Shown here: positions 1-42,800 of the stretch, in pieces
How positions within the stretch are numbered: the stretch's first letter is position 1
How the letters are laid out: each line of letters begins with the position of its first letter
Source of the DNA: Sternotherus odoratus
Lineage: Eukaryota > Chordata > Testudines > Kinosternidae
NCBI GenBank assembly: GCA_032164245.1
Contig: JAVMKO010000005.1
Location: forward strand, 58,513,442-58,577,441
DNA: 64,000 nucleotides
Direction: 5' to 3'
Notes under the pieces: model-generated
Told to the model about the DNA's origin: nothing
What the model saw: only the letters and a program-made list of their open reading frames with translations
Databases searched by the model: none
Made by a program: the position numbers and the translations under genes

Positions 1-497
1 CAAAGGATCAAAGTGAATTTCTGCTTCACAGTCCTTGATACTGTTGTTCACTCAGTTGATGAAAGATTTCAACAGATGCAGCAGCTACAGTCCGAATTTG
101 GCTTTCTATATGATATCCACAGCTTGCAAAAGAAAACAGCAAAACAGATAAAATAATTTTGTATAAAACTGGAGTCAGCATTGATTAATGAAAATTCAAA
201 AGACATTGATGCTACAGATTTGTGTAGTGAGCACCAAGCTTTTTCAAGACGACTAAGAAACATTCCATTCCTGGAGAAGTGCTGAAGTTTGTTTGTGAAA
301 ATAAACTCTCAGACAGTTTCCCAAACATTTTTATAGCTCTACACATTCTTTTAACTTTGCCAGTTTCCACAGCTAATGGGAAAAATAGCTTCTCAAAGAT
401 AAAATTGACAAAAACATATCTGCGTTCAACAGTGCAAGAGAGATTTATTGAACTTGCCACAATGTCAGTAGAGCATGGAAAACTGGATCTAAAATAA
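1..497 (+). pseudogene. hAT-family transposase relic (ZMYM1-like, C-terminal part)
   Basis: Reading from base 1, the frame gives a hAT-transposase-like stretch (FTVLDTVVHSVDERFQQMQQ) interrupted by stops at 154-156 and 283-285. A second frame from 279 to the stop at 495-497 gives the hAT C-terminal dimerisation region, with LHILLTLPVSTANGKNSFSK and IKLTKTYLRSTVQERF. In the family this block normally reads like 'IPVTVASAERSFSKLK'. The match to ZMYM1-like/hAT proteins is from recognition, not a search. It is broken by at least one stop and one frameshift and its 5' part lies outside the window, so it is a dead copy. It could be a processed copy of a domesticated gene rather than a transposon remnant. 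Confidence 0.7.
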
Positions 498-4394: not shown

Positions 4395-4830
4395 TTAATG
4401 GAATGTAAAGTCTGGAACATAGTCTTGTGAAGAGTTTATTAAATCTGGTAAAGAGCCCAATTCTACTTGGACCCTTTTTTCAGCCCTCTGATTCTTCGTA
4501 CAAAATGCAGTCAACCTGTGGAATTCTTTGACAGGGAATGTTGGAAAGGCCAAGACTATATCAAAGTTCAAAAAAGAACTAGATAAGTTCATGGAGGATA
4601 GGTCCATCAATGGGTATTACCCAGGATGGGCAGGGATGCTCTAAAGTGGCCCTAAGCTGTTTGTCAGAAGCTGGGAATGGGCTACAGGGGATAGATCACT
4701 TGATAATTATCTATTTTGTTCATTCCCTCTGAAGCACCTGGCATTGGCCACTATTGGGGAAACAGGATACCGGGCTAGATGGAACATTGGTCTGACCCAG
4801 TATGGCTGGGTTCTGAAGTTCTTATGAATT
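4395..4830 (+). mobile_element. CR1 LINE 3' fragment
   Basis: Corresponds to the last part of CR1 ORF2 and the 3' UTR: GTCAACCTGTGGAATTCTTT, AAAAAAGAACTAGATAAGTT, then GGGCTAGATGGAACATTGGT and CTGACCCAGTATGGC. The same phrases occur at the 3' end of the copy ending near 29017. It is 5'-truncated, as is typical of CR1. Confidence 0.9.
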
Positions 4831-6215: not shown

Positions 6216-6892
6216 CAGGACCGGCGACAGGAATTTTGGGGCCCCGTACGGCAGATCGTACGGCCCCCCCATCTCCCGCCGCCCGCGGGGCCCCCCCCTG
6301 CCCGGTCTCCCGCCGCCCGCGGGGTTGCCCCCCCGGCCCGGTCTCCCGCCGCCCGCGGGGTTGCCCCCCCGGCCCGGTCTCCCGCCGCCCGTGGGGTTGC
6401 CCCCCCGGCCCAGTCTCCCGCCGCCCGTGGGGTTGACCCCCCGGCCCAGTCTCCCGCCGCCCGCGGGGTTGCCCCCCTCCGCCCGGTCTCCCGTCGCCCG
6501 TGGGGTGCCACCCCACCCGGTCTCCCGCCACCCGTGCCCTCCCCCCCCGCTGGTCTCCCACCACCCGCGGGGTTCCCCCCCCGGCCGGTGTCCCGCCACC
6601 CGCGGGCTTCCCCCCCCGCCGGTCTCCTGCTGCCCGTGCCCCCGCCGGTCTCCTACCTCCCTTGGGCCCCAACCCCCGCATGCGCTGCGGCCGCGTGGGC
6701 GGCCGGGAGAAGCAAAGGCGGGCGGGGGAGGGGGCTGGTGAGCGCTGCAGCGGCTGCCCGGAGCCGCGCCTTGCTCACAGCCCCGGCGACAAGGGGGTAC
6801 AGCTGAGTACCGGGCCCGGACTTCAGGGGGCCCCCCTGAAGTCTGGGGCACGTTACAGCTGTACCCTTTGAACCCCCCTGTCGCCGGCCCTG
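6216..6892. mobile_element. non-autonomous hAT element (inner), minisatellite-bearing
   Basis: Starts CAGGACCGGCGACAGG and ends CCTGTCGCCGGCCCTG, inverted ends. It is flanked by a perfect 8-bp duplication GGTCAAGC (6208-6215 and 6893-6900) made from the outer element. Inside are a 36-bp minisatellite and, at about 6783-6888, a long inverted repeat (GGCGACAAGGGGGTACAGCT against its complement near 6860-6887). No transposase gene. Confidence 0.88.
6290..6650. repeat. 36-bp GC-rich minisatellite inside a hAT element
   Basis: Units built on GGTCTCCCGCCGCCCGCGGG start at 6304, 6340, 6376, 6412, 6448, 6485 and 6519, then degrade to about 6650. The 36-bp period is a multiple of three, so long Pro/Gly/Arg-rich open frames exist on both strands (up to about 240 codons). 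These are not genes. Confidence 0.9.
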
Positions 6893-18965: not shown

Positions 18966-19029
18966 GAATGGCCAAGCATTAAGTACAGGCAGGGGGTTCA
19001 CGTGTGCTGTAGAACACCATGTAAAGTGA

Positions 19030-19737
19030 AGTGGGCAGTTTTCACAAAGTGATCTACTTCATAGCTGACCCCTCAGTCATTGTCCTTAAAGGAAATCTGC
19101 CCAATGTCTTCAAAAGACAAACCTGGGAACTTCAATTCATAACTCTGCTGAGCAGAGAAGATGAGTGTCTGATATTTTCTTAGTTAATCACATAAGGGCT
19201 CCTGACCAGCATTGGCGTGTAGAATAAACCTAAAATTGTCAAACGAGAGCTGGCTGATCATATATCACTGGCTTCGCTGCCTTATTTCCAGCTACAAACC
19301 TGCATGAGAAAGAAGCTTGAATACTTTCCCAAAGACTTTATTTCTTGGAAACAATTGCTGCATTTGCCACATGGATGTTTTGTAATCATGATTAGGAATG
19401 CAGATAGCTATGACACTCTATTAAAATGTGGTCCCTAACATGAAAAAACTTGACACACTCTAAACTACTTAATAAAAGATCTAGATTAGCAGGATCCAAG
19501 GCTTTGGTTCATGTTGTCAGGAGCCAGATGCATAATCTGAATTATGATCCTCCCTCCATCCTTTTCTCTTGAGGGTTCTTTCTAAAACAGACAAAGTATT
19601 TATTAACAGTCACAAATCATTATAGAAATATACACCAGACTGCAGTTCCGTACAATTTCAGGTACAGATGGTTACACCAGGGACACAATGATTCCAATAA
19701 ATGCTGAAACTGAAATAAACAAATAATGACCAAGATT
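19030..19737. other. sequence upstream of the tandem array; no gene recognised
   Basis: AT-rich, single-copy in appearance. It shows no similarity to the array unit until about 19738, where the array starts abruptly in mid-unit. Confidence 0.45.
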
Positions 19738-19783
19738 CAGGAAGTTCTCCAGGTGAAGAAGGAGTAGATACAGGACCCTTGGG

Positions 19784-19863
19784 GTAAGTGGCTGTGTGTG
19801 TTTGGGGGTACTGGCTGTGTGCTGAGCTTGTTTCTGTCTGTTCCTCTGAGTGTTTGTTTGCAG
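19784..19863 (+). promoter_or_regulatory. Representative mini-intron in the first monomer (80 bp)
   Basis: GTAAGT at 19784 follows CTTGGG; CAG/G ends at 19863. Between them are TGTGCTGAGCTTG (a possible branch site, CTGAG) and TTTCTGTCTGTTCCTCTG plus TTTGTTTGCAG. The last monomer has the same 80-bp spacing (25143-25222). Two monomers (near 23867 and 24630) read GTAAAT instead of GTAAGT. An intron of about 80 bp is near the lower limit used in vertebrates, so splicing is plausible but unproven. Confidence 0.55.
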
Positions 19864-19962
19864 GAGCATCTGCTCTGGCTGGCAGTTGGTGTGACGTTTA
19901 GAAGCCTCTGTCCATTGGCTGAGCCTTAATCAGGGGGTGGGGCTAATGAGGAAGCCCAGGAC

Positions 19963-22900
19963 TTTATAAAGCAGCCAGCAAGCGAACAGGGGAGTTGTGA
20001 GGGAGTTCTCCAGGTGAAGAAGGAGCAGATACAGGACCCTTGGGGTAAGTGGCTGTGTGTTTGGGGGTACTGGCTGTGTGCTGAGTTTGTGTTTCTGTCT
20101 GTTCCTCTGAGTGTTTGTTTGCAGGAGCATCTGCTCTGGCTGGCAGTTGGTGTGACCTTTAGAAGCCTCTGTCCATTGGCTGAGCCTTAATCAGGGGGTG
20201 GGGCTAATGAGGAAGGCCAGGGCTTTATAAAGCAGCCAGCAAGCGACTAGGGGAGTTGTGAGAGGGAGTTCTCCAGGTGAAGAAGGAGCAGATACAGGAC
20301 CCTTGGGGTAAGTGGCTGTGTGTGTTTGGGGGTACTGGCTGTGTGCTGAGCTTGTTTCTGTCTGTTCCTCTGAGTGTTTGTTTGCAGGAGCATCTGCTCT
20401 GGCTGTCAGTTGGTGTGACCTTTAGAAGCCTCTCTCCATTGGCTGAGCCTTAATCAGGGGGTGGGGCTAATGAGGAAGGCCAGGGCTTTATAAAGCAGCC
20501 AGCAAGGGACCAGGGAGCTTGGGAACAGGAGAGTTGTGAGAGGGAGTTCTCCAGGTGAAGAAGGAGCAGATAAAGGACCCTTGGGGTAAGTGGCTGTGTG
20601 TGTTTGGGGGTACTGGCTGTGTGCTGAGCTTGTGTTTCTGTCTGTTCCTCTGACTTTGCAGGAGCATCTGCTCTGGCTGGCAGTTGGTGTGACCTTTAGA
20701 AGCCTCTGTCCATTGGCTGAGCCATAATCAGGGGGTGGGGCTAATGAGGAAGGCCAGGGCTTTATAAAGCAGCCAGCAAGTGACCAGGGGAGTTCTCCAG
20801 GTGAAGAAGGAGCAGATACAGGACCCTTGGGGTAAGTGGCTGTGTGTGTTTGGGGGTACTGGCTGTGTGCTGAGCTTGTGTTTCTGTCTGTTCCTCTGAG
20901 AGTTTGTTTGCAGGAGCATCTGCTCTGGCTGGCAGTTGGTGTGACGTTTAGAAGCCTCTGTCCATTGGCTGAGCCTTAATCAGGGGGTGGGGCTAATGAG
21001 GAAGCCCAGGACTTTATAAAGCAGCCAGCAAGCGACCAGGGGAGTTGTGAGGGAGTTCTCCAGGTGAAGGAGCAGATACAGGACCCTTGGGGTAAGTGGC
21101 TGTGTGTTTGGGGGTACTGGCTGTGCGCTGAGCTTGTGTTTCTGTCTGTTCCCCTGAGTGTTTGCAGGAGCATCTGCTCTGGCTGGCAGTTGGTGTGACC
21201 TTTAGAAGCCTCTGTCCATTGGCTGAGCCTTAATCAGGGGGTGGGGCTAATGAGGAAGGCCAGGGCTTTATAAAGCAGCCAGCAAGCCACCAGGGGAGTT
21301 GTGAGAGGGAGTTCTCCAGGTGAAGGAGCAGATACTGGACCCTTGGGGTAAGTGGCTGTGTGTGTTTGAGGGTACTGGCTGTGTGCTGAGCTTGTGTTTG
21401 TCTGAGTGTTTGTTTGCAGGAGCATCTGCTCTGGCTTGCAGTTGGTGTGACGTTTAGAAGCCTCTGTCCATTGGCTGAGCCTTAATTAGGGGGTGGGGCT
21501 AATGAGGAAGGCCAGGGCTTTATAAAGCAGCCAGGGAGCTTGCGACCAGGGGAGTTGTGAGAGGGAGTTCTCCAGGTGAAGAAGGAGCAGATACAGGACC
21601 CTTGGGGTAAGTGGCTGTGTGTGTTTGGGGGTACTGGCTGTGTGCTGAGCTTGTTTCTGTCTGTTCCTCTGAGTGTTTGTTTGCAGGAGCATCTGCTCTG
21701 GCTGTCAGTTGGTGTGACCTTTAGAAGCCTCTGTCCATTGGCTGAGCCTTAATGAGGGGGTGGGGCTAATGAGGAAGGCCAGGGCTTTATAAAGCAGCCA
21801 GCAAGCCACCAGGGGAGTTGTGAGAGGGAGTTCTCCAGGTGAAGGAGCAGATACTGGACCCTTGGGGTAAGTGGCTGTGTGTTTGGGGGTACTGGCTGTG
21901 TGCTGAGTTTGTGTTTGTCTGTTCCTCTGAGTGTTTGTTTGCAGGAGCATCTGCTCTGGCTGTCAGTTGGTGTGACCTTTAGAAGCCTCTGTCCATTGGC
22001 TGAGCCTTAATCAGGGGGTGGGGCTAATGAGGAAGGCCAGGGCTTTATAAAGCAGCCAGCAAGGGACCAGGGAGCTTGGGAACAGGGGAGTTGAGAGGGA
22101 GTTCTCCAGGTGAAGGAGCAGATACAGGACCCTTGGGGTAAGTGGCTGTGTTTGGGGGTACTGGCTGTGCACTGAGCTTGTGTTTCTGTCTGTTTGTTTG
22201 CAGGAGCATCTGCTCTGGCTTGCAGTAGGTGTGACGTTTAGAAGCCTCTGTCCATTGGCTGAGCCTTAATCAGGGGGTGGGGCTAATGAGGAAGGCCAGG
22301 GCTTTATAAAGCAGCCAGGGAGCTTGCGACCAGGGGAGTTGTGAGAGGGAGTTCTCCAGGTGAAGGAGCAGATAAAGGACCCTTGGGGTAAGTGGCTGTG
22401 TGTTTGGGGGTACTGGCTGTGCACTGAGCTTGTGTTTCTGTCTGTTTGCAGGAGCATCTGCTCTGGCTGGCAGTTGGTGTGACCTTTAGAAGCCTCTGTC
22501 CATTGGCTGAGCCTTAATCAGGGGGTGGGGCTAATGAGGAAGGCCAGGGCTTTATAAAGCAGCCAGCAAGCGAACAGGGGAGTTGTGAGGGAGTTCTCCA
22601 GGTGAAGAAGGAGCAGATACAGGACCCTTGGGGTAAGTGGCTGTGTGTGTTTGGGGGTACTGGCTGTGTGCTTTGCTTGTGTTTCTGTCTGTTCCTCTGA
22701 GAGTTTGTTTGCAGGAGCATCTGCTCTGGCTGGCAGTTGGTGTGACGTTTAGAAGCCTCTGTCCATTGGCTGAGCCTTAATCAGGGGATGGGGCTAATGA
22801 GGAAGGCCAGGGCTTTATAAAGCAGCCAGCAAGTGACCAGGGGAGTTCTCCAGGTGAAGAAGGAGCAGATAAAGGACCCTTGGGGTAAGTGGCTGTGTGT

Positions 22901-25329
22901 TTGGGGGTACTGGCTGTGTGCTGAGCTTGTTTCTGTCTGTTCCTCTGAGTGTTTGCAGGAGCATCTGCTCTGGCTGGCAGTTGGTGTGACCTTTAGAAGC
23001 CTCTGTCCATTGGCTGAGCCTTAATCAGGGGGTGGGGCTTTATAAAGCAGCCACAAGCGACCAGGGAGCTTGGGAACAGGGGAGTTGAGAGGGAGTTCTC
23101 CAGGTGAAGGAGCAGATACAGGACCCTTGGGGTAAGTGGCTGTGTGTTTGGAGGTACTGGCTGTGCACTGAGCTTGTGTTTCTGTCTGTTCCTCTGAGAG
23201 TTTGTTTGCAGGAGCATCTGCTCTGGCTGGCAGTTGGTGTGACCTTTAGAAGCCTCTGTCCATTGGCTGAGCCTTAATCAGGGGGTGGGGCTAATGAGGA
23301 AGGCCAGGGCTTTATAAGGCAGCCAGCAAGCAACCAGGGGAGTTGTGAGAGGGAGCAGATACAGGACCTTTGGGGTAAGTGGCTGTGTGTTTGGGGGTAC
23401 TGGCTGTGTGCTGAGTTTGTGTTTGTCTGTTCCTCTGAGTGTTTGTTTGCAGGAGCATCTGCTCTGGCTGTCAGTTGGTGTGACCTTTAGAAGCCTCTGT
23501 CCATTGGCTGAGCCTTAATCAGGGGGTGGGGCTAATGAGGAAGGCCAGGGCTTTATAAAGCAGCCAGCAAGCAACCAGGGGAGTTGTGAGAGGGAGCAGA
23601 TACAGGACCTTTGGGGTAAGTGGCTGTGTGTGTTTGGGGGTACTGGCTGTGCACTGAGCTTGTGTTTCTGTCTGTTTGTTTGCAGGAGCATCTGCTCTGG
23701 CTTGCAGTTGGTGTGACGTTTAGAAGCCTCTGTCCATTGGCTGAGCCTTAATCAGGGGGTGGGGCTAATGAGGAAGGCCAGGGCTTTATAAAGCAGCCAG
23801 CAAGTGACCAGGGGAGTTGTGAGAGGGAGTTCTCCAGGTGAAGGAGCAGATACAGGACCCTTGGGGTAAATGGCTGTGTGTGTTTGGGGGTACTGGCTGT
23901 GTGCTTTGCTTGTGTTTCTGTCTGTTCCTCTGAGAGTTTGTTTGCAGGAGCATCTGCTCTGGCTGGCAGTTGGTGTGACCTTTAGAAGCCTCTGTCCATT
24001 GGCTGAGCCTTAATCAGGGGGTGGGGCTTTATAAAGCAGCCAGCAAGGGACCAGGGAGCTTGCGAACAGGAGAGTTGTGAGGGAGTTGTCCAGGTGAAGG
24101 AGCAGATACATGACCCTTGGGGTAAGTGGCTGTGTGTGTTTGGGCGTACTGGCTGTGTGCTGAGCTTGTTTCTGTCTGTTCCTCTGACTTTGCAGGAGCA
24201 TCTGCTCTGGCTGGCAGTTGGTGTGACCTTTAGAAGCCTCTGTCCATTGGCTGAGCCTTAATCAGGGGGTGGGGCTAATGAGGAAGGCCAGGGCTTTATA
24301 AAGCAGCCAGCAGGCGAACATTGGAGTTGTGAGGGAGTTCTCCAGGTGAAGGAGCAGATACAGGACCCTTGGGGTAAGTGGCTGTGTGTGTTTGGGGGTA
24401 CTGGCTGTGTGCTGAGCTTGTGTTTCTGTCTGAGTGTTTGTTTGCAGGAGCATCTGCTCTGGCTTGCAGTTGGTGTGACCTTTAGAAGCCTCTGTCCATT
24501 GGCTGAGCCTTAATCAGGGGGTGGGGCTAATGAGGAAGGCCAGGGCTTTATAAAGCAGCCAGCAAGCGACCAGGGGAGTTGTGAGAGGGAGTTCTCCAGG
24601 TGAAGAAGGAGCAGATACAGGACCCTTGGGGTAAATGGCTGTGTGTGTTTGGGGGTACTGGCTGTGTGCTGAGCTTGTTTCTGTCTGTTCCTCTGAGAGT
24701 TTGTTTGCAGGAGCATCTGCTCTGGCTTGCAGTTGGTGTGATGTTTAGAAGCCTCTGTCCATTGGCTGAGCCTTAATCAGGGGGTGGGGCTAATGAGGAA
24801 GGCCAGGGCTTTATAAAGCAGCCAGCAAGTGACCAGGGGAGTTGTGAGAGGGAGTTCTCCAGGTGAAGGAGCAGATACAGGACCCTTGGGGTAAGTGGCT
24901 GTGTGCTGAGCTTGTGTTTCTGTCTGTTCCTCTGAGTGTTTGTTTGCAGGAGCATCTGCTCTGGCTGGCAGTTGGTGTGACCTTTAGAAGCTTCTGTCCA
25001 TTGGCTGAGCCTTAATCAGGGCGTGGGGCTAATGAGGAAGGCCAGGGCTTTATAAAGCAGCCAACAAGTGACCAGGGAGCTTGGGAACGGGAGTTGTGAG
25101 AGGGAGTTCTCCAGGTGAAGGAGCAGATACAGGACCCTTGGGGTAAGTGGCTGTGTGTTTGGGGGTACTGGCTGTGTGCTGAGCTTGTGTTTCTGTCTGT
25201 TCCTCTGAGTGTTTGTTTGCAGGAGCATCTGCTCTGGCTTGCAGTTGGTGTGACCTTTAGAAGCCTCTGTCCACTGGCTGAGCCTTAATCAGGGGGTGGG
25301 GCTAATGAGGAAGGCCAGGGCTTTATAAA
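19963..25329 (+). promoter_or_regulatory. Repeated RNA polymerase II promoter modules (CCAAT, GC/CACCC box, TATA)
   Basis: Each monomer holds CATTGGCTGAG (an NF-Y site read on the other strand as CAGCCAATG), about 25 bp later GGGTGGGGC (Sp1/KLF-like), and about 25 bp after that TTTATAAA. The first TATA is at 19963-19970 and the last at 25322-25329. Spacing and order fit a classical Pol II core promoter pointing right. A start would be expected about 25-30 bp after TATA, near CCAGGGGAGTTGTG. A few units have GTGGGGCTTTATAAA with the spacer deleted. Promoter activity is inferred from motifs only. Confidence 0.75.
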
Positions 25330-25490
25330 GCAGCCAGCAAGTGACCAGGGGAGTTGTGAGGGAGTTAGGAAGGTGGGTGGGAAGCAGGGGAGGCCTAACT
25401 GTCACTCTTTAAATCCTGTCCCTTAAACTATAAACTATAGTCTAAACTCCCTCAATTAAACATTCCTATTAACCTACATCACTGTTAGAG

Positions 25491-26401
25491 ATGATGGAGG
25501 CAGAAGCCCAGCAGCAGAGTGGGGGCTATCCAGTTTATTGCACTCAATGTAGCATGTATGACTATCTGCCCTATGGGCCGGTGGCGTATGTGTGCATTCG
25601 GTGCAAGGAGCTCCTGGCCCTCAGACTGTGTACGGGCTTTGGAGGCCAGGGTGGCGGAACTGGAGGAGCAAAGGGAGGCAGAGAGGTATGTTGACGAGAC
25701 TTTCAGGGACATCGTAGGCTTGTCCCACCTCCGGTCAGACAGAGCCTGTGCTGTTGAGGAGGATGAAAGGCCTTGGGAAGGAGAGCAGTCAACGGGAGCA
25801 GAGGGAAACCTTCCCACAGCTGGGACCCTTCTTCCAGGTGACGGAGGGGTGTCCCCTTGCACAGAGGTCACCTCTCCAGGGGAGGGAACTCCAATTATTA
25901 GGAAACGGCAGCTGTTAGTAATGGGGGATTCTATCATAAATATAGATAGCTGGGTTTGTGATCGGGAGAACCGTATGGTGACTTGCCTGCCTGGTGCAAA
26001 GGTTGCGGATCTATCGAGGCATCTAGATAGACTTATGAGTAGTGCTGGGGAGGAGCCGGTGGTCATGGTACATGTAGGTACCAAAGACATAGGGAAGGGT
26101 AGGAGAGATGTCCTGGAGGCCAAATTTAGGTTGCTAGGAAAGAGGTTGAAATCCAGGACCTCTATGGTGGCTTTCTCAGAAATGCTTCCAGTTCCACGCG
26201 CAGCGCCAGGTAGAGCTTCAGAGTCTCAATGCGTGGATGAGACGATGGTGTAGAGAGGAAGGGTTCAGATTTATTAGGAACTGGGGAAACTTTTGGGATA
26301 GGGGGAGCCTATACAGGAAGGATGGGCTCCACCTAAACCAAAGTGGAACCTGGCTGCTGGCACTTAACATTAAAAAGGTTGCAGAGCAGTCTTTAAACTA
26401 A
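25491..26401 (+). pseudogene. CR1 ORF1: zinc-ribbon-like, coiled-coil and SGNH-esterase protein, frameshifted
   Basis: The first ATG (25491) begins MMEAEAQQQSGG. It is followed by a Cys pair YCTQC and, 18 residues on, a second pair CIRC, a likely zinc-binding unit. After a frameshift near 25620-25640 comes a short coiled coil (ALEARVAELEEQREAERY), then an acidic linker. The SGNH-hydrolase (esterase) domain follows: block I LVMGDSII, with the nucleophile Ser codon at 25930-25932, and HVGTKDI where relatives have GTND. After another frameshift near 26245 comes RKDGLHLNQSG, holding the Asp (26321-26323) and His (26330-26332) of the triad. CR1 ORF1 esterases are known from vertebrates; their exact role in retrotransposition is unclear. 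The Asn-to-Lys change in block III and two frameshifts mark this copy as inactive. Confidence 0.85.
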
Positions 26402-26589
26402 GATGGGGGAAAGCCGATTGCTGCAGAGGAGCACGTGGATCGGATAGAGACTTTTCTTACAGGAGGGTCTGTTAAAGATTCTCTAGGTTCTAGACAGGAA
26501 AGGATGGAAAAGGATAAAGGAGGGGCCAGATCAGATGAGAAATTTTCACATAAAGAATCTGACACACCAGGGAAGAGCAGACAGATAAA

Positions 26590-28820
26590 CGGTGACCAGT
26601 TTTTAAAGTGCTTGTACACAAATGCCAGAAGTCTAAATAATAAGATGGGTGAACTAGAGTGCCTTGTGTTAGAGGAGGATATTGACATAATAGGTATCAC
26701 AGAAACATGGTGGACCGAGGACAATCAATGGGACACAATCATTCCAGGGTATAAAATATATCGGAAGGACAGAATAGGTCGTGGGGGCGGGGGAGTGGCA
26801 CTTTATGTAAAAGTGTAGAATCAAATGAAGTAAAAATCTTAAATGAATCCACATGTTCCATAGAATCACTATGGATAGTAATTTCATGCTCTAATAAGAA
26901 CATAACAATAGGGCTCTATCGACCACCTGATCAGGACCGTGATAGGGATGACGAAATGCTAAGGGAGATTAGAGAGGCTGTCAAAATAAAGAACCCAATA
27001 ATAGTGGGAGACTTCAATTATCCCAACATTGACTGGGTACATGTCACCTCGGGACGAAATGCAGAGATGAAATTTCTTGATACTTTAAATGACTGCTTCT
27101 TGGAGCAGCTGGTACAGGAACCCACAAGGGGAGAGGCAACTCTGGATTTAGTCCTGAGTGGAGCGCAGGATCTGGTTCAAGAGGTAACTATAAGGACCGC
27201 TGGGAAATAGTGACCATAATATAATAACATTTAACATTCCTATGGTGGGAATAATACCTCAGAAGCCCAACACTGGGGCATTTAATTTCAAAAAGGGGAA
27301 CTATGAAAGAATGAGGGGGTTAGTTAAACAGAAATTAAAAGGTAAAGTGACTAAAGTGAAATCCCTGCAAGCTGCATGGACTCTCTTCAAAGATACCATA
27401 ATAAAGGCCCAACTCAAATGTATACCCCAAATTAAAAAACAACGCCAGAAAACTAAAGTCACCGTGGCTTAACAGCCAAGTAAAAGAAGCAGTGAGAGAA
27501 AAAGGCATCATTTAAAAAGTGGAAGTCTAATCCTAGTGAGGTAAATAGAAAGGAGCATAAGCACTGCCAAAAAGTGTAAGAATGTAATAAGAAAAGCTAA
27601 AATGGAGTTTGAAGAGCAGCTAGCCAAAAGCTCAAAAGGTAATAAAATGTTTTTTAAATGTCAGAAGCAGGAAGCCTGCTAAACAACCAGTGGGGCCCCT
27701 GGATGACAGAGATACAAAAGGAGCACTTAAAGATGACAGTCATTGCAGAGAAACTAAATGAATTCTTTGCTTCAGTCTTCACGGCTGAGGACGTTAGGGA
27801 GATTCCTAAACCTGAGCTGTCTTTTGTAGGTGACAAATCTGAGGTATTGTCACAAATTGAAGTATCAGTAGAGGAGGTTCTGGAACTCCTTGATAAACTT
27901 AACTGTAACAAATCACCGGGACCAGATGGCATTCACCCAAGAGTTCTGAAAGAACTCAAATGTGAAATTGCGGCACTATTAACGAGGGTTTGTAACCTAT
28001 CCTTTAAATCGGCTACTGTGCCCAGTGACTGGAGTAGTAAGGACCAAAGCAGACTGTGAAGAACTTCAAAAAGATCTCACTAAACTAAGTGATTGGGCAA
28101 CAAAATGGCAAATGAAATTTAATGTGGATAAATGTAAAGTAATGCACATTGGAAAAAATAACCCCAACTATACATACAATATGATGGGGGCTAATTTAGC
28201 TACAACCAATCAGGAAAAAGACCTGGGAGTCATTGTGGATAGTTCTCTGAAGGCATCCACGCAGTGTGCAGCGGCAGTCAAAAAAGCAAACAGGATGTTA
28301 GGAATCATTAAAAAAAGGGATAGAGAATAAGTCGGAGAATATCTTATTGCCCTTATACAAATCCATGGTGCGCCCACATCTAGAATACTGCGTACAAATG
28401 TGGTCTCCATCTCAAAAAGGATATACTGGCACTAGAAAAGGTTCAGAGAAGGGCAACTAAAATGATTAGGGGTTTGGAACGGGTCCCATATGAAGAGATT
28501 AAAGAGGCTAGGACTTTTTAGCTTGGAAAAGAGGAGACTAAGGGGGGATATGATAGAGGTATATAAAATTGAGTGGTGTGGAGGAAGTAAATAAGGAAAA
28601 GTTATTTACTTGTTCCCAAAATAGAAGAACTAGGGGCCACTCAATGAAATTGGCGTGCAGCAGGTTTAAAACAAATAAAAGGAAGTTCTTCTTCACACAG
28701 CGCACAGTCAACCTGTGGAACTCCTTACCTGAGGAGGCTGTGAAGGCTAGGACTATAACAGGGTTTAAAAGAGAGCTGGATAAATTCATGGAGGCTAAGT
28801 CCATAAATGGCTATTAGCCG
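26590..28820 (+). pseudogene. CR1 ORF2: endonuclease and reverse transcriptase, RT core deleted
   Basis: APE-type endonuclease: KCLYTNARSLNNKMGELE, IIGITETWW (catalytic Glu), GLYRPPDQD, IIVGDFNYPNIDW, ATLDLVLS, and the SDH motif at 27209-27217 in a shifted frame. Then come FKKGNYERMRGLV and, after frameshifts, the reverse transcriptase start: LLDKLNCNKSPGPDGIHPRV and SATVPSDW. The next residues, TKADCEELQKDLTKLSDWAT and MKFNVDKCKVMHIG, belong downstream of the polymerase active site. The block carrying the YxDD motif is therefore gone, the junction lying near 28030-28040. The tail (VEWCGGSK, QPVELLT) runs to about 28815 with stops. Confidence 0.88.
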
Positions 28821-29149
28821 GGATGGGTAATGAATGGTGTCCCTAGCCTCTGTCTGTCAGAGGGGGGTGATGGATGGCAGGAGAGAGATCGCTCGATCAT
28901 ACCTGTTAGGTTCACTCACTCCGGGGCACCTGGCACTGGCCACTGTCGGTAGACAGGATGCTGGGCTAGATGGACCTTTGGTCTGACCCAGTATGGCCGT
29001 TCTTAAGTTCTTATGTTAAGTGATATGAAGTGAGGGATTTCATGTGAAGCTCTATTTTTTGGAAAGCTAGATGTTGCTTAAATGTGATGTTCTGGTACAT
29101 CAATTAGTTTTACAATAACACTAGTTTCATACATACATTGATAAAATAT

Positions 29150-30003
29150 TGCTCAGGCATGGAGGAGTAAAATTAGGAAGACCAAATCACACTTGGAGTT
29201 GCAGCTAACAGGAGATGTTAACAGTAGCAAGAAGGGTTTCTTCAGGTATGTTAGCAACAAGAAGAAAGTCAAGGAAAGTGTGGGCCCCTTGCTGAATGAG
29301 GAAGGCAACCTAGTGACAGAAGATGTGGAGAAAGCTAATGTACTCAAGACAAGGTCAGATCCCAGCCTACTGCACTATGCAGCACAGTATGGGGAGGAGG
29401 TGACCAGTCCTCTGTGAAGAAAGAAGTGGTTTAGGACTATTTAGAAAAGCAGGATGAGCACAAATCTATGGGGCCGGATGTGCTGCATCCAAGGGTGCCA
29501 AAGGAATTGGCAGATGTGATTGCAGAGCCATTGGCCATTATCTTTGAAAACTTGGCACTTGGGGGAGGTTCTGGATGACTGGAAGAAAGCTAATGTGGTG
29601 CCCATCTTTAAAAAAGGGAAGCAGGAGGATCTGGGGAACTGCAGGTCAGCCTCACCTCAGTCCCTGGAAAAAATCATGGAGTAGGTTCTTAAGGAATCAA
29701 CTCTGAATCACTTAAAGGAGAGGAAAGTGATCAGGAACAGTCAGCATGGATTCACCAAAGGTAAGTCATGCCTGACTAACCTAATTGCCTTCTACGGTGA
29801 GAACTGGCTCTGTGGATGAGGGGAAAGCGGTGGACGTGTTATTCCTTGACTTTAAAAATCTTTTTAAAGCTTTGTTTAAGTCAGGCTTAACAAAGCCCTG
29901 CCTGGGATGATTTAGTTGGGGATTGGTCCTGCTTTGAGCAGGTGATTGGACTAGATGACGACTTGATCTCCTTTCTAACCCTGATAGTCTCTGATTCTAT
30001 GAA
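29150..30003 (+). mobile_element. second CR1-clade LINE fragment
   Basis: Frames give KKGFFRYVSNKKKVKESVGP, LLNEEGNLVTEDVEKANV, then DDWKKANVVPIFKKGKQEDL and [20 protein letters not shown], i.e. the N-terminal half of a reverse transcriptase. It then skips to a 3' end (GACTAGATGACGACTTGATC ... GTCTCTGATTCTATGA). This belongs to a different, older-looking subfamily than the copy before it. RT palm and C-terminus are deleted. Confidence 0.85.
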
Positions 30004-30487: not shown

Positions 30488-30588
30488 CCCTCTCCCTCTC
30501 CCTCTCCCTCTCCCTCTCCCTCTCCCTCTCCCTCTCCCTCTCCCTCTCCCTCTCCCTCTCCCTCTCCCTCTCCCTCTCCCTCTCCCTC
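30488..30588 (+). repeat. (CCCTCT)n microsatellite
   Basis: About 17 uninterrupted copies of the hexamer. The six-base period makes Pro-Leu, Pro-Ser and, on the other strand, Arg-Glu open frames that are not genes. Confidence 0.97.
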
Positions 30589-40043: not shown

Positions 40044-42800
40044 CAGTGATGGCAAACCTTTTTGAGCCCAAGTGCCCAAACTGCAAACCAAAATGACTTG
40101 TTTTTTTCAAAGTGCCAACACTGCAATTAAACCTGAATAACGAGGTTTTAGTTTAGAAAAAACAATTCGTACAGTTTTTCAAACTAATTAACAGCTTTTG
40201 TTTAAAAAGAAAAACACAACAACATTTTTTTATTGAAAAAAACAAAAACAAACAAAAAAAAAACTGTACACCCCCCCCCAACTGACCCACTCAGCCCAGT
40301 CTCTCCCCCCCAAACCTCCTCCCTCCCACCCACCCCCCAAATGACCCACCCAGCCCGGTCTCTCCCCCCCAAACCTCCTTCCCTCCCACCCACCCCCAAA
40401 TGACCCACCCAGCCCGGACTCTCCCCCCCAAACCTCCTTCCCTCCCACCCACCCCCCAAATGACCCACCCAGCCTGGTCTCTCCCCCCAAACCTCCTTTC
40501 CTCCCACTCCCCAACTGACCCACCCAGCCAGGTCTCCCCCCAAACCTCCTTTCCTCCAACCCCCCCCCCCCCAACTGACCCACACAGCCTGGTCTCTCCC
40601 CCAAACCTCCTTTCCTCCCACTCCCCAACTGACCCACCCAGCCAGGTCTCCCCCCCCCCCCCAAACCTCCTTTCCTCCAACCCCCCCCCCCAACTGACCC
40701 ACACAGCCAGGTCTCTCCCCCCCCAAACCTCCTTTCCTCCCACTCCCCAACTGACCCACCCAGCCAGGTCTCCCCCCCCCCCCCCAAACCTCCTTTCCTC
40801 CAACCCCCCCCCCAACTGACCCACACAGCCAGGTCTCTCCCCCCCAAACCTCCTTTCCTCCCACCCCCCCAACTGACCCACCCAGCCAGGTCTCCCCCCC
40901 CCCCCCCCAACCTCCTTTCCTCCAACCCCCCCCCCAACTGACCCACACAGCCAGGTCTCTCCCCCGCAAACCTCCTTTCCTCCACCCCTCCCAACTGACC
41001 CACACAGCCAGGTCTCTCCCCCGCAAACCTCCTTCCTCCCACCCACCCCCCAACTGACCCACCCAGCCTGGTCTCTCCCCCCCAAAACCTCCTTTCCTCC
41101 AACCCCCCCCCCAACTGACCCACACAGCCAGGTCTCTCCCCCGCAAACCTCCTTTCCTCCCACCCCCACCGCCCAAATGACCCACCAGCCTGGTCTCTCC
41201 CCCCAAACCTCCTTTCCTCCCACCCCCCAACTGACCCACCCAGCCAGGTCTCCCCCCCCAAACCTCCTTTCCTCCAACCCCCCCCCCAACTGACCCACAC
41301 AGCCAGGTCTCTCCCCCCCTCTCCCCCCCAAACCTCCTTTCCTCCCACCCCCCCCAACTGACCCACCCAGCCAGGTCTCCCCCCCCCCCCCCCCCAACCT
41401 CCTTTCCTCCAACCCCCCCCCCAACTGACCCACACAGCCAGGTTAAAACCTCCTTTCCTCCAACCCCTCCCAACTGACCCACACAGCCTGGTCTCTCCCC
41501 CCCAAAACCTCCTTTCCTCCAACCCCCCCCCCCAACTGACCCACACAGCCAGGTCTCTCCCCCGCAAACCTCCTTTCCTCCCACCCCCACCGCCCAACTG
41601 ACCCACCCAGCCTGGTCTCTTCCCCCAAACGTCCTTCCCTCCAACCCCCCTCAACTGACCCACCCAGCCTGGTCTCTCCCCCCAAACCTCCTTTCCTCCC
41701 ACCCCCCAACTGACCCACCCAGCCAGGTCTCCCCCCCCAAAACCTCCTTTCCTCCAACCCCCCCCCAACTGACCCACACAGCCAGGTCTCTCCCCCCAAC
41801 CTCCTTTCCTCCCACCCCCCCAACTGACCCACCCAGCCAGGTCTCCCCCCCCCCCCCCAACCTCCTTTCCTCCAACCCCCCCCAACTGACCCACACAGCC
41901 AGGTCTCTCCCCCGCAAACCTCCTTTCCTCCAACCCCTCCCAACTGACCCACCCAGCCTGGTCTCTCCCGCCCAAAACCTCCTTTCCTCCAACCCCCCCC
42001 CCCCAACTGACCCACACAGCCAGGTCTCTCCCCCCGCAAACCTCCTTTCCTCCCACCCCCACCGCCCAAATGACCCACCCAGCCAGGTCTCCCCCCAAAC
42101 CTCCTTTCCTCCAACCCCCCAACTGACCCACCCAGCCAGGTCTCCCCCCCAAACCTCCTTTCCTCCAACCCCCCCCCACTGACCCACACAGCCAGGTCTC
42201 TCCCCCCCAAACCTCCTTTCCTCCCACCCAGCCAGTCTCCCCCCCCCCCCCCCCCAACCTCCTTTCCTCCAACCCCTCCCAACTGACCCACACAGCCAGG
42301 TCTCTCCCCGCAAACCTCCTTTCCTCCCACCCACCCCCCAACTGACCCACCCAGCCTGGTCTCTCCCCCCCAAAACCTCCTTTCCTCCCACCCCCCACCC
42401 CCCAACTGACCCACCCAGCCTGGTCTCTCCCCCCCAAACCTCCTTCCCTCCAACCCCCCTCAACTGACCCACCCAGCCCAGTCTCTCCCCCACACCGCTT
42501 ACCCCCGCTCCCAGCCCAGCCTTCCCCCGGCGCTTACTTGTTCGCTGGGTCACGCTGCTGTGACCCGACTCCAGTGAGGCCCCTGCCCCAGTCGCTCCTG
42601 TGACGTCCGTGTGTCAGGTGATAGAGCGGGGGGCGTGGCTTCAGTGTTCTCTGGGGAGGGTTCTCCCCAGAGAACTGTGGGAGATGTAGTCTGCGGGAGC
42701 CGACGCCGTGACTACAGTGTATGACTGTAGTCACGGCGTGCCCACAGAGACGGCTCGGCGTGCCAGCAGCGGCACGCGTGCCACGGGTTCGCCATCACTG
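40044..42800. mobile_element. non-autonomous hAT element expanded by an internal minisatellite
   Basis: Starts CAGTGATGGCAAACCTTTTT and ends GGGTTCGCCATCACTG, inverted ends. Perfect 8-bp target duplication GTCTATGT (40036-40043 and 42801-42808). Of 2,757 bp, about 2.2 kb is the minisatellite. The unique parts are about 220 bp at the left and about 310 bp at the right. No transposase. Confidence 0.92.
40268..42490. repeat. GC-rich ~57-bp minisatellite, about 38 units
   Basis: Units built on AACTGACCCACMCAGCCAGG, TCTCYCCCCC and AAACCTCCTTTCCTCC repeat at 54-60 bp. The landmark TGACCCA is at 40283, 40342, 40401, 40461, 40516, 40576, 40630 and so on. Length variation is mostly in the C runs (5 to about 17). 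Much of the middle alternates two unit types (ACCCAGCC with TCCCACC; ACACAGCC with TCCAACC), a roughly 115-bp dimer. Open frames of up to 735 codons on the minus strand (Gly/Trp/Arg-rich) are by-products. Confidence 0.95.

What the first reader, a model, noticed from the sequence alone, without database searches (positions are those of the whole stretch)
19738..25490. Tandem promoter array feeding a CR1 LINE: a monomeric 5' UTR
Seen: 22 units of about 255 bp, each with inverted CCAAT, GGGTGGGGC and TATA boxes in promoter order on the + strand. The last TATA (25322) lies about 160 bp before the ATG of CR1 ORF1, and I see no ATG in between. CR1-unique sequence starts inside the leader of the last unit (after GAGGGAGTT, about 25365). 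The array is therefore joined to the LINE in register, in the right place and direction. Known: mouse L1 elements carry tandem promoter monomers. Most CR1 copies are strongly 5'-truncated, so such a 5' end is rarely seen. I do not recall monomeric promoters described for CR1. Inference: these are CR1 promoter monomers that expanded by unequal exchange or during reverse transcription.
Basis: partly seen in the sequence, partly recalled or inferred. Interest (0 to 1): 0.93.

Follow-up and report, generated by a model that had tools for sequence, protein, structure and literature searches.

The report
Turtle CR1 LINE with tandem promoters
A CR1-family jumping element in what looks like a turtle genome carries 22 copies of its own start switch in a row, and sister copies begin exactly where such a switch would start their RNA, so copying seems to use up switches that some copies have regained in rows up to tens of kilobases long.

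Summary
Window 19739-25365 is a 22-unit head-to-tail array joined to a CR1 LINE (25366 to about 29017). The window's own genome (1.76 Gb, unnamed) shows that the unit is the normal 5' UTR of a young CR1 subfamily: 54 places carry its CR1-specific 5' UTR. In 39 other copies found with a probe that lacks the unit, 5' ends are quantised: 10 have no unit and 13 exactly one, starting 23-58 bases (16 of them 23-36) after the position of a TATA box, as Pol II transcripts would; 11 are cut inside the last unit, 5 inside a second. Besides the window, four long arrays were found: about 200 units on the same chromosome, and about 50, at least about 100 and at least about 130 on C8. Three of these four join CR1 sequence in the same orientation, and both whose 5' edge was read start at the canonical CR1 5' end. 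No read copy lies between about 1.3 and 22 units. Splice-like signals sit in every unit, yet no spliced copy was found. This is the mouse-L1 monomer principle, independently in the CR1 clade, with TATA boxes and far longer arrays. Promoter activity and the way arrays grow are inferred.

The parts
19739..25365 (+). Array of 22 promoter units (225-274 bp between TATA boxes), the 5' UTR of this CR1 copy
19739..19746 (+). 5' edge of the element: starts in the leader, about 36 bases after where the TATA of a preceding unit would lie, i.e. in the transcription-start phase
   Evidence: phase compared
25324..25329 (+). Last TATA box (TATAAA), which would give a leader without any ATG before ORF1
25143..25222 (+). 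Intron-like stretch of the last unit (GTAAGT...TTTGCAG); the same signals are in all 22 units
   Evidence: never seen removed
25366..25493 (+). CR1-specific 5' UTR, 54 places in the genome at up to 2 mismatches of a 29-base piece
25494..26400 (+). CR1 ORF1 (SGNH esterase type), broken by frameshifts
26402..28830 (+). CR1 ORF2 remains (endonuclease, part of reverse transcriptase); about 550 bp missing at 28033 relative to three other copies
29000..29015 (+). CR1 3' end with TTCTTAAG/TTCTTATG octamers, then unrelated flank

Best explanation
The units are the internal Pol II promoter of a young CR1 LINE subfamily, arranged as tandem monomers. Each unit holds a GC-rich box and a TATA box (in this lineage also an inverted CCAAT) and then a leader; RNA starts about 30 bases after a TATA. 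RNA from one unit contains the units downstream of it but not the promoter that made it, so a copy has at least one promoter fewer than its source; most copies end with none or one. Some copies have long arrays again, from 22 to about 200 units, probably by DNA-level duplication in place, and these keep promoters to spend. The window copy is one such long-array element, now dead, of a lineage that was already defective and so probably moved with proteins of intact relatives. SHOWN: unit and junction recur in CR1 copies; 5' ends are quantised at the TATA-start phase; long arrays recur, mostly joined to CR1. INFERRED: promoter activity, loss of a promoter per cycle, trans-mobilisation, and growth by unequal exchange (one 4.8-kb block duplication seen).
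For: Unit plus junction in other CR1 copies. 5' ends of 39 other copies: 16 in a 14-base window at TATA+23..36 against 1.9 expected under uniform phase, p about 1e-11, in two classes one unit apart. Canonical 5' ends at the far edge of the C5 array and of the C8:49.56 Mb array. Arrays joined in register to CR1 5' UTR at C8:48.06 and C8:49.57 Mb and to a CR1 body at C5:52.06 Mb. No array behind the CR1 3' end in the window. Window and C5 copies share 6 indels and 1 substitution in about 1.05 kb. Block duplication of 4821 bp in the C5 array.
Against: No RNA evidence. A fixed 5' end could also be a reverse-transcriptase stop, though it would then have to recur at the same TATA distance in both classes. 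Eleven of 39 ends lie inside the last unit and 5 inside a second, so truncation is common too. If long arrays were transcribed from every unit, copies with 2-20 units should be common, but among 50 of 54 copies read none lies between about 1.3 and 22 units; promoters nearest the body must dominate, or long RNAs are rarely copied in full. The dispersed-type units aligned lack the CCAAT.
Confidence: 0.82

Rival explanations
1. Growth in place only: the window CR1 arrived with one or a few units and the array then grew here by unequal exchange; the number of units says nothing about what was inserted.
For: The C5 and C8:49.56 Mb arrays begin with a canonical CR1 5' end, as if an ordinary insertion had grown inside, and the C5 array has a block duplication. 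No copy read has between about 1.3 and 22 units, so insertion of long arrays looks rare.
Against: Units in the window array differ by 3.3-3.6% substitutions on average while the body carries 0.7% private substitutions (12 of about 1690); there is no neighbour similarity, no repeated 3-unit block and no identical pair among 210. But the closest pairs differ by only 6 changes, about what duplication at insertion would give, so some growth here is possible.
Confidence: 0.4
2. Insertion of the whole array: a transcript that started upstream of the first unit carried all 22 units and the body and was inserted in one event.
For: 5' edge in the start phase; unit diversity larger than the age signal of the body; array private substitutions 26 of 5737 against 12 of 1690 in the body, Fisher p 0.24.
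Against: No other copy with a complete second unit among the 39; no direct source array identified (0 of 21 window units are as close to one of 7 C5 units held as to another window unit).
Confidence: 0.55
3. The array is an unrelated satellite or host gene promoter that happens to abut a CR1.
For: The unit resembles promoter, first exon and short intron of a gene, so its ultimate origin may be a captured host promoter.
Against: Unit and junction recur at CR1 copies with different flanks; the array does not resume behind the CR1.
Confidence: 0.02

Closest known systems
Monomeric 5' UTR of mouse L1 (A, Gf, Tf subfamilies)
   Same: Tandem promoter units of 200-300 bp upstream of ORF1, number varying between copies, unique stretch between units and ORF1, preferred 5' start points in the unit taken as transcription starts (PMC6454616 and PMC9022269, passages).
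   Different: Another LINE clade (CR1, esterase ORF1); TATA box in the unit; most copies have 0-1 unit and a few 22 to about 200, whereas young mouse subfamilies average 3-4 and seven loci have more than 10 (PMC9022269 passages).
CR1 5' UTRs of chicken (CR1-B, CR1-F) and the turtle CR1 of Kajikawa et al. 1997
   Same: Same LINE clade; subfamilies with unrelated 5' UTRs are known; turtle CR1 is said to have a 32-bp direct repeat in the 5' UTR (PMC2734521, section 8; the 1997 paper itself was not seen).
   Different: No tandem full-promoter units are described there; the chicken CR1-B 5' UTR is about 240 bp.
Satellites born from transposable elements (general knowledge)
   Same: The C5 and C8 arrays are long tandem blocks derived from an element part.
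   Different: They keep element boundaries: canonical 5' end in both edges read, CR1 sequence at the other side in three of four.

Membership tests
CR1 LINE | ORF1 with SGNH esterase (CR1 type) | tested here: met
   80% identity over 83% of the query to a Chrysemys picta bellii esterase-domain protein; other turtle relatives
CR1 LINE | ORF2 with endonuclease and reverse transcriptase | tested here: met
   PF14529 in one ORF2 piece, E 1.9e-10; the read-through ORF2 finds reptile reverse-transcriptase proteins. No Pfam match for the RT piece itself, part of which is deleted
CR1 LINE | 3' end in short octamer repeats, no poly(A) | tested here: met
   TTCTTAAG/TTCTTATG at 29000-29015 and the same octamer in L086-L088
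Monomeric LINE promoter (mouse L1 type) | Tandem units in the 5' UTR, number varying between copies | tested here: met
   0, 1, 22, about 50 and more units in different copies
Monomeric LINE promoter (mouse L1 type) | Preferred 5' starts at one phase of the unit | tested here: met
   16 of 39 ends within 14 bases of the 292-base ruler unit
Monomeric LINE promoter (mouse L1 type) | Measured promoter activity | not testable with these tools
   no RNA or reporter data
L1 LINE | L1-type ORF1 and poly(A) 3' end | tested here: not met
   CR1-type esterase ORF1 and octamer 3' end
Satellite independent of an element | Long arrays at places without the element | tested here: inconclusive
   Of five long arrays, four join CR1 sequence; at C8:44.19 Mb no CR1 in about 370 bp read

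The most novel reading that the evidence does not exclude
A CR1 lineage runs a promoter budget: each round of retrotransposition started from a TATA box costs at least one promoter unit, so ordinary copies are dead or have one round left, and the lineage lives on through rare copies whose arrays have been re-amplified at DNA level into satellites of promoters (22 to about 200 units; at least about 136 kb in this genome). Such arrays would be both the element's germline reservoir and a new source of satellite DNA.
Probability: 0.4. Interest if true: 0.83.

Novelty: new variant of a known kind. Interest (0 to 1): 0.74.

Why it matters
How LINEs with internal promoters keep them through truncation-prone copying is open; the mouse L1 paper says the mechanism of monomer duplication remains unclear (PMC6454616, abstract passage). 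Here a separate LINE clade shows the same solution with a sharper ruler: a TATA box fixes the start, so each copy's 5' end tells which promoter made it. Short copies and array-bearing copies of one young subfamily sit in one genome, so promoter loss and promoter regain can be studied apart, and the step from transposon part to satellite is caught with element boundaries still in place.

Tried and rejected
Unrelated satellite beside a CR1: rejected. Intron use: 22 of 22 sampled copies spanning the donor keep the stretch (20 by pattern, L011 and L070 by eye), and the expected spliced junction has 0 matches at up to 2 mismatches in the genome. Homogenisation of the window array after insertion, first suspected from the many frameshifts: not needed (26 of 5737 against 12 of 1690 private substitutions, Fisher p 0.24). 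A higher-order period in the first 23 kb of the C5 array from TATA spacing: not above shuffles; the 4821-bp block lies further on. C5 array as direct source of the window array: not supported. Predicted proteins containing units: 0 of 722 candidates. Exact module in IMG/VR: 0. Rfam at gathering scores in 19000-29200: 0. Closer members of the defective lineage by 27440-27760: 40 of 1617 candidates listed, next best 95%; the C5 copy is not in that list. Target-site duplication of 7 bases or more: none found. Papers: seven answered searches of the held open-access library listed no paper on monomeric CR1 promoters that I recognised from titles and abstract starts; subscription papers and Repbase reports were not searched.

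Full report
WHAT IS THERE. Window 19739-25365 is an array of 22 units in one orientation, TATA spacing 225-274 bp. Exact counts: TTTATAA 22, CCATTGG 21, GGGTGGGGC 20, donor-like GGTAAGTGG 20 plus GGTAAATGG 2, acceptor-like TTTGCAGGAGC 22. It passes into CR1 sequence after GAGGGAGTT at about 25365; ORF1 starts at 25491/25494 with no ATG between it and the last TATA. The body is a CR1: ORF1 is 80% identical over 83% of the query to a Chrysemys esterase-domain protein, an ORF2 piece matches PF14529, the 3' end at about 29015 carries TTCTTATG-type octamers. The copy is dead: frameshifts and about 550 bp missing at 28033.

IS IT PART OF THE LINE? Yes. A probe over the last unit and the junction finds other CR1 copies with both. 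A probe without any unit (25366-25560) gave 385 loose candidates, of which 40 were scored and listed, 96-100% identical. A 29-base piece of the CR1-specific 5' UTR has 54 places at up to 2 mismatches, control 0; the 40 are all among these 54. So the subfamily has about 54 copies that reach this far, and I read upstream sequence of 50: the 40, eight held from probes that included the unit (L003, L006, L007, L064 and its duplicate L065, L080, L082, L083), and two on C8. The array does not resume behind the CR1.

QUANTISED 5' ENDS. Of the 39 other copies from the unbiased probe: 10 have no unit and start in the leader (6 at 23-36 and 4 at 37-58 bases after the TATA position), 13 have exactly one unit and start at the same phase (10 and 3), 11 start inside the last unit, 5 inside a second. 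The narrow window holds 16 of 39 against 1.9 expected for uniform phase (p about 1e-11), the wide one 23 against 4.8. The test assumes independent, uniform starts. None of the 39 has two complete units. The simplest reading is that these ends are transcription starts of the parents; the mouse L1 work argues alike (PMC6454616, passages).

CONSEQUENCE. RNA started at a TATA does not contain that TATA. A copy without a unit has no such promoter; a one-unit copy can only give copies without one; the 13 one-unit copies needed sources with at least two promoters. Five of the 39 ends lie at ruler phase 205-215, a possible second site that I did not follow.

LONG ARRAYS RECUR. The TATA module has 203 forward and 365 reverse matches at up to 2 mismatches, control 0. 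(1) The window subtype (CCATTGG and AATGAGG, up to 1 mismatch) has 21 forward and 202 reverse matches: 20 of the forward ones are in the window and L035 holds one; all 86 listed reverse ones, and 46 of 46 of a variant, lie in an array at C5:52.06-52.12 Mb. Its 5' edge at about 52120656 is the canonical start GCTTGCGACC with a full leader. Its 3' part is split by a provirus-like insertion with two identical 476-bp LTR-like copies, resumes for three units and runs into a CR1 body at the equivalent of window 26749. From these edges, less about 6 kb, it is about 53.6 kb or about 200 units; the middle was not read base by base. (2) A module of the dispersed type (CAGTGG, AATCAGG; up to 2 mismatches) has 128 forward and 136 reverse matches, control 0, and its list (first 100) shows three arrays on C8. 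At 49.56-49.57 Mb the array runs from a canonical 5' end at about 49560085 to a junction with CR1 5' UTR in register at about 49573680: about 13.6 kb, about 50 units. At 48.03-48.06 Mb it joins CR1 5' UTR in register at about 48060650, the body breaking off just after the ORF1 start; its 5' edge was not reached, so at least 27.6 kb. At 44.19-44.22 Mb it spans at least 35.7 kb; no CR1 in the about 370 bp read behind it and the 5' edge was not reached. With the window this is at least about 136 kb of promoter units. I edges-checked these arrays; continuity between is from module positions.

WHAT THIS SAYS ABOUT MECHANISM. Among 50 of 54 copies read, 47 have at most about 1.3 units and 3 (window, C8:48.06, C8:49.57) have 22 or more. 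Two things follow. First, long arrays with canonical 5' ends look like ordinary insertions that grew inside, by DNA-level duplication; a 4821-bp block repeated in register in the C5 array (8 module positions) shows such an event, although spacing in its first 23 kb shows no period above shuffles. Second, if every unit of a long array started productive RNA, copies with 2-20 units should exist; their absence counts against a plain one-by-one countdown and suggests that the promoters nearest the body dominate or that long RNAs are rarely copied in full.

THE WINDOW ARRAY. Units differ on average by 3.3-3.6% substitutions; 115 of 351 pairs of informative sites fail the four-gamete test, so units have recombined. 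Private substitutions are 26 of 5737 in the array and 12 of about 1690 in the body (Fisher p 0.24). No neighbour similarity, no repeated 3-unit block, no identical pair among 210. Most diversity therefore probably predates insertion, which favours arrival of many units together; but the closest pairs differ by 6 changes, about what duplication at insertion would give by my estimate, so growth here is not excluded. I put arrival together at 0.55.

A DEFECTIVE LINEAGE. The window and C5 bodies share 6 indels and 1 substitution in about 1.05 kb, with 7 substitutions and 4 indels private to the window and 22 and 5 to C5; a 4-base deletion near 26811 is found in these two and in no other locus matched there. 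Both thus descend from an already broken ancestor, which implies help in trans (inference). The window copy has 8 private indels in 1.7 kb against a mean of 0.48 (maximum 3) in 27 others; I cannot explain this excess.

SPLICE-LIKE SIGNALS. About 80 bp separate donor-like and acceptor-like signals in the last unit. No spliced copy was found. They fit an origin from a host promoter with its first exon, untested.

COMPARISON. It works like the mouse L1 monomer promoter and is a CR1, not an L1. Young mouse subfamilies average 3-4 monomers, seven loci have more than 10, and mouse L1 is called the vertebrate record (PMC9022269, passages); 22 to about 200 units exceed this. For CR1, the chicken paper (PMC2734521, section 8 read) mentions unrelated 5' UTRs and a 32-bp direct repeat in turtle CR1. 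I rate it a new variant of a known kind.

LIMITS. One assembly, whose array lengths may be wrong; no RNA; four copies not read; motif names (TATA, CCAAT, GC box, splice signals) are from general knowledge.

Noticed in passing
window 25366-27032; L079: The window CR1 has 8 private small indels in 1.7 kb against a mean of 0.48 (maximum 3) in 27 other copies, and shares 6 indels but only 1 substitution with the C5:52.06 Mb copy: an indel-dominated history without explanation.
   Followed up: partly
L079 and L090 (G000:C5:52061778-52067766): A provirus-like insertion with two identical 476-bp LTR-like copies sits inside the long C5 promoter array; observed only.
   Followed up: no
L033 and L064, 5' ends: Short tandem duplications of the leader at the 5' end: about six 13-base copies in L033, two 26-base copies in L064; possible traces of reverse-transcriptase slippage or template jumps.
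   Followed up: no
L089 (G000:C13:29304950-29306350); also C13:29401513 and C13:29505606: Diverged (about 85%) unit followed by the start of a second, three similar places about 100 kb apart on C13; the one read runs into other sequence just after the splice-donor-like site.
   Followed up: partly
L014, L015, L021, L069, L073: Five of 39 5' ends fall at ruler phase 205-215, between the intron-like stretch and the GC box: a possible second start or stop site.
   Followed up: no
window 40270-42491, 6272-6636, 30488-30588: Three other tandem repeats: a roughly 59/122-bp pyrimidine-rich array, a 36-bp GC-rich array and (CCCTCT)17.
   Followed up: no
window 4508-4826 and about 29140-30000: Other CR1-like fragments: one about 75% identical to part of this CR1, one seen by eye just downstream.
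   Followed up: no
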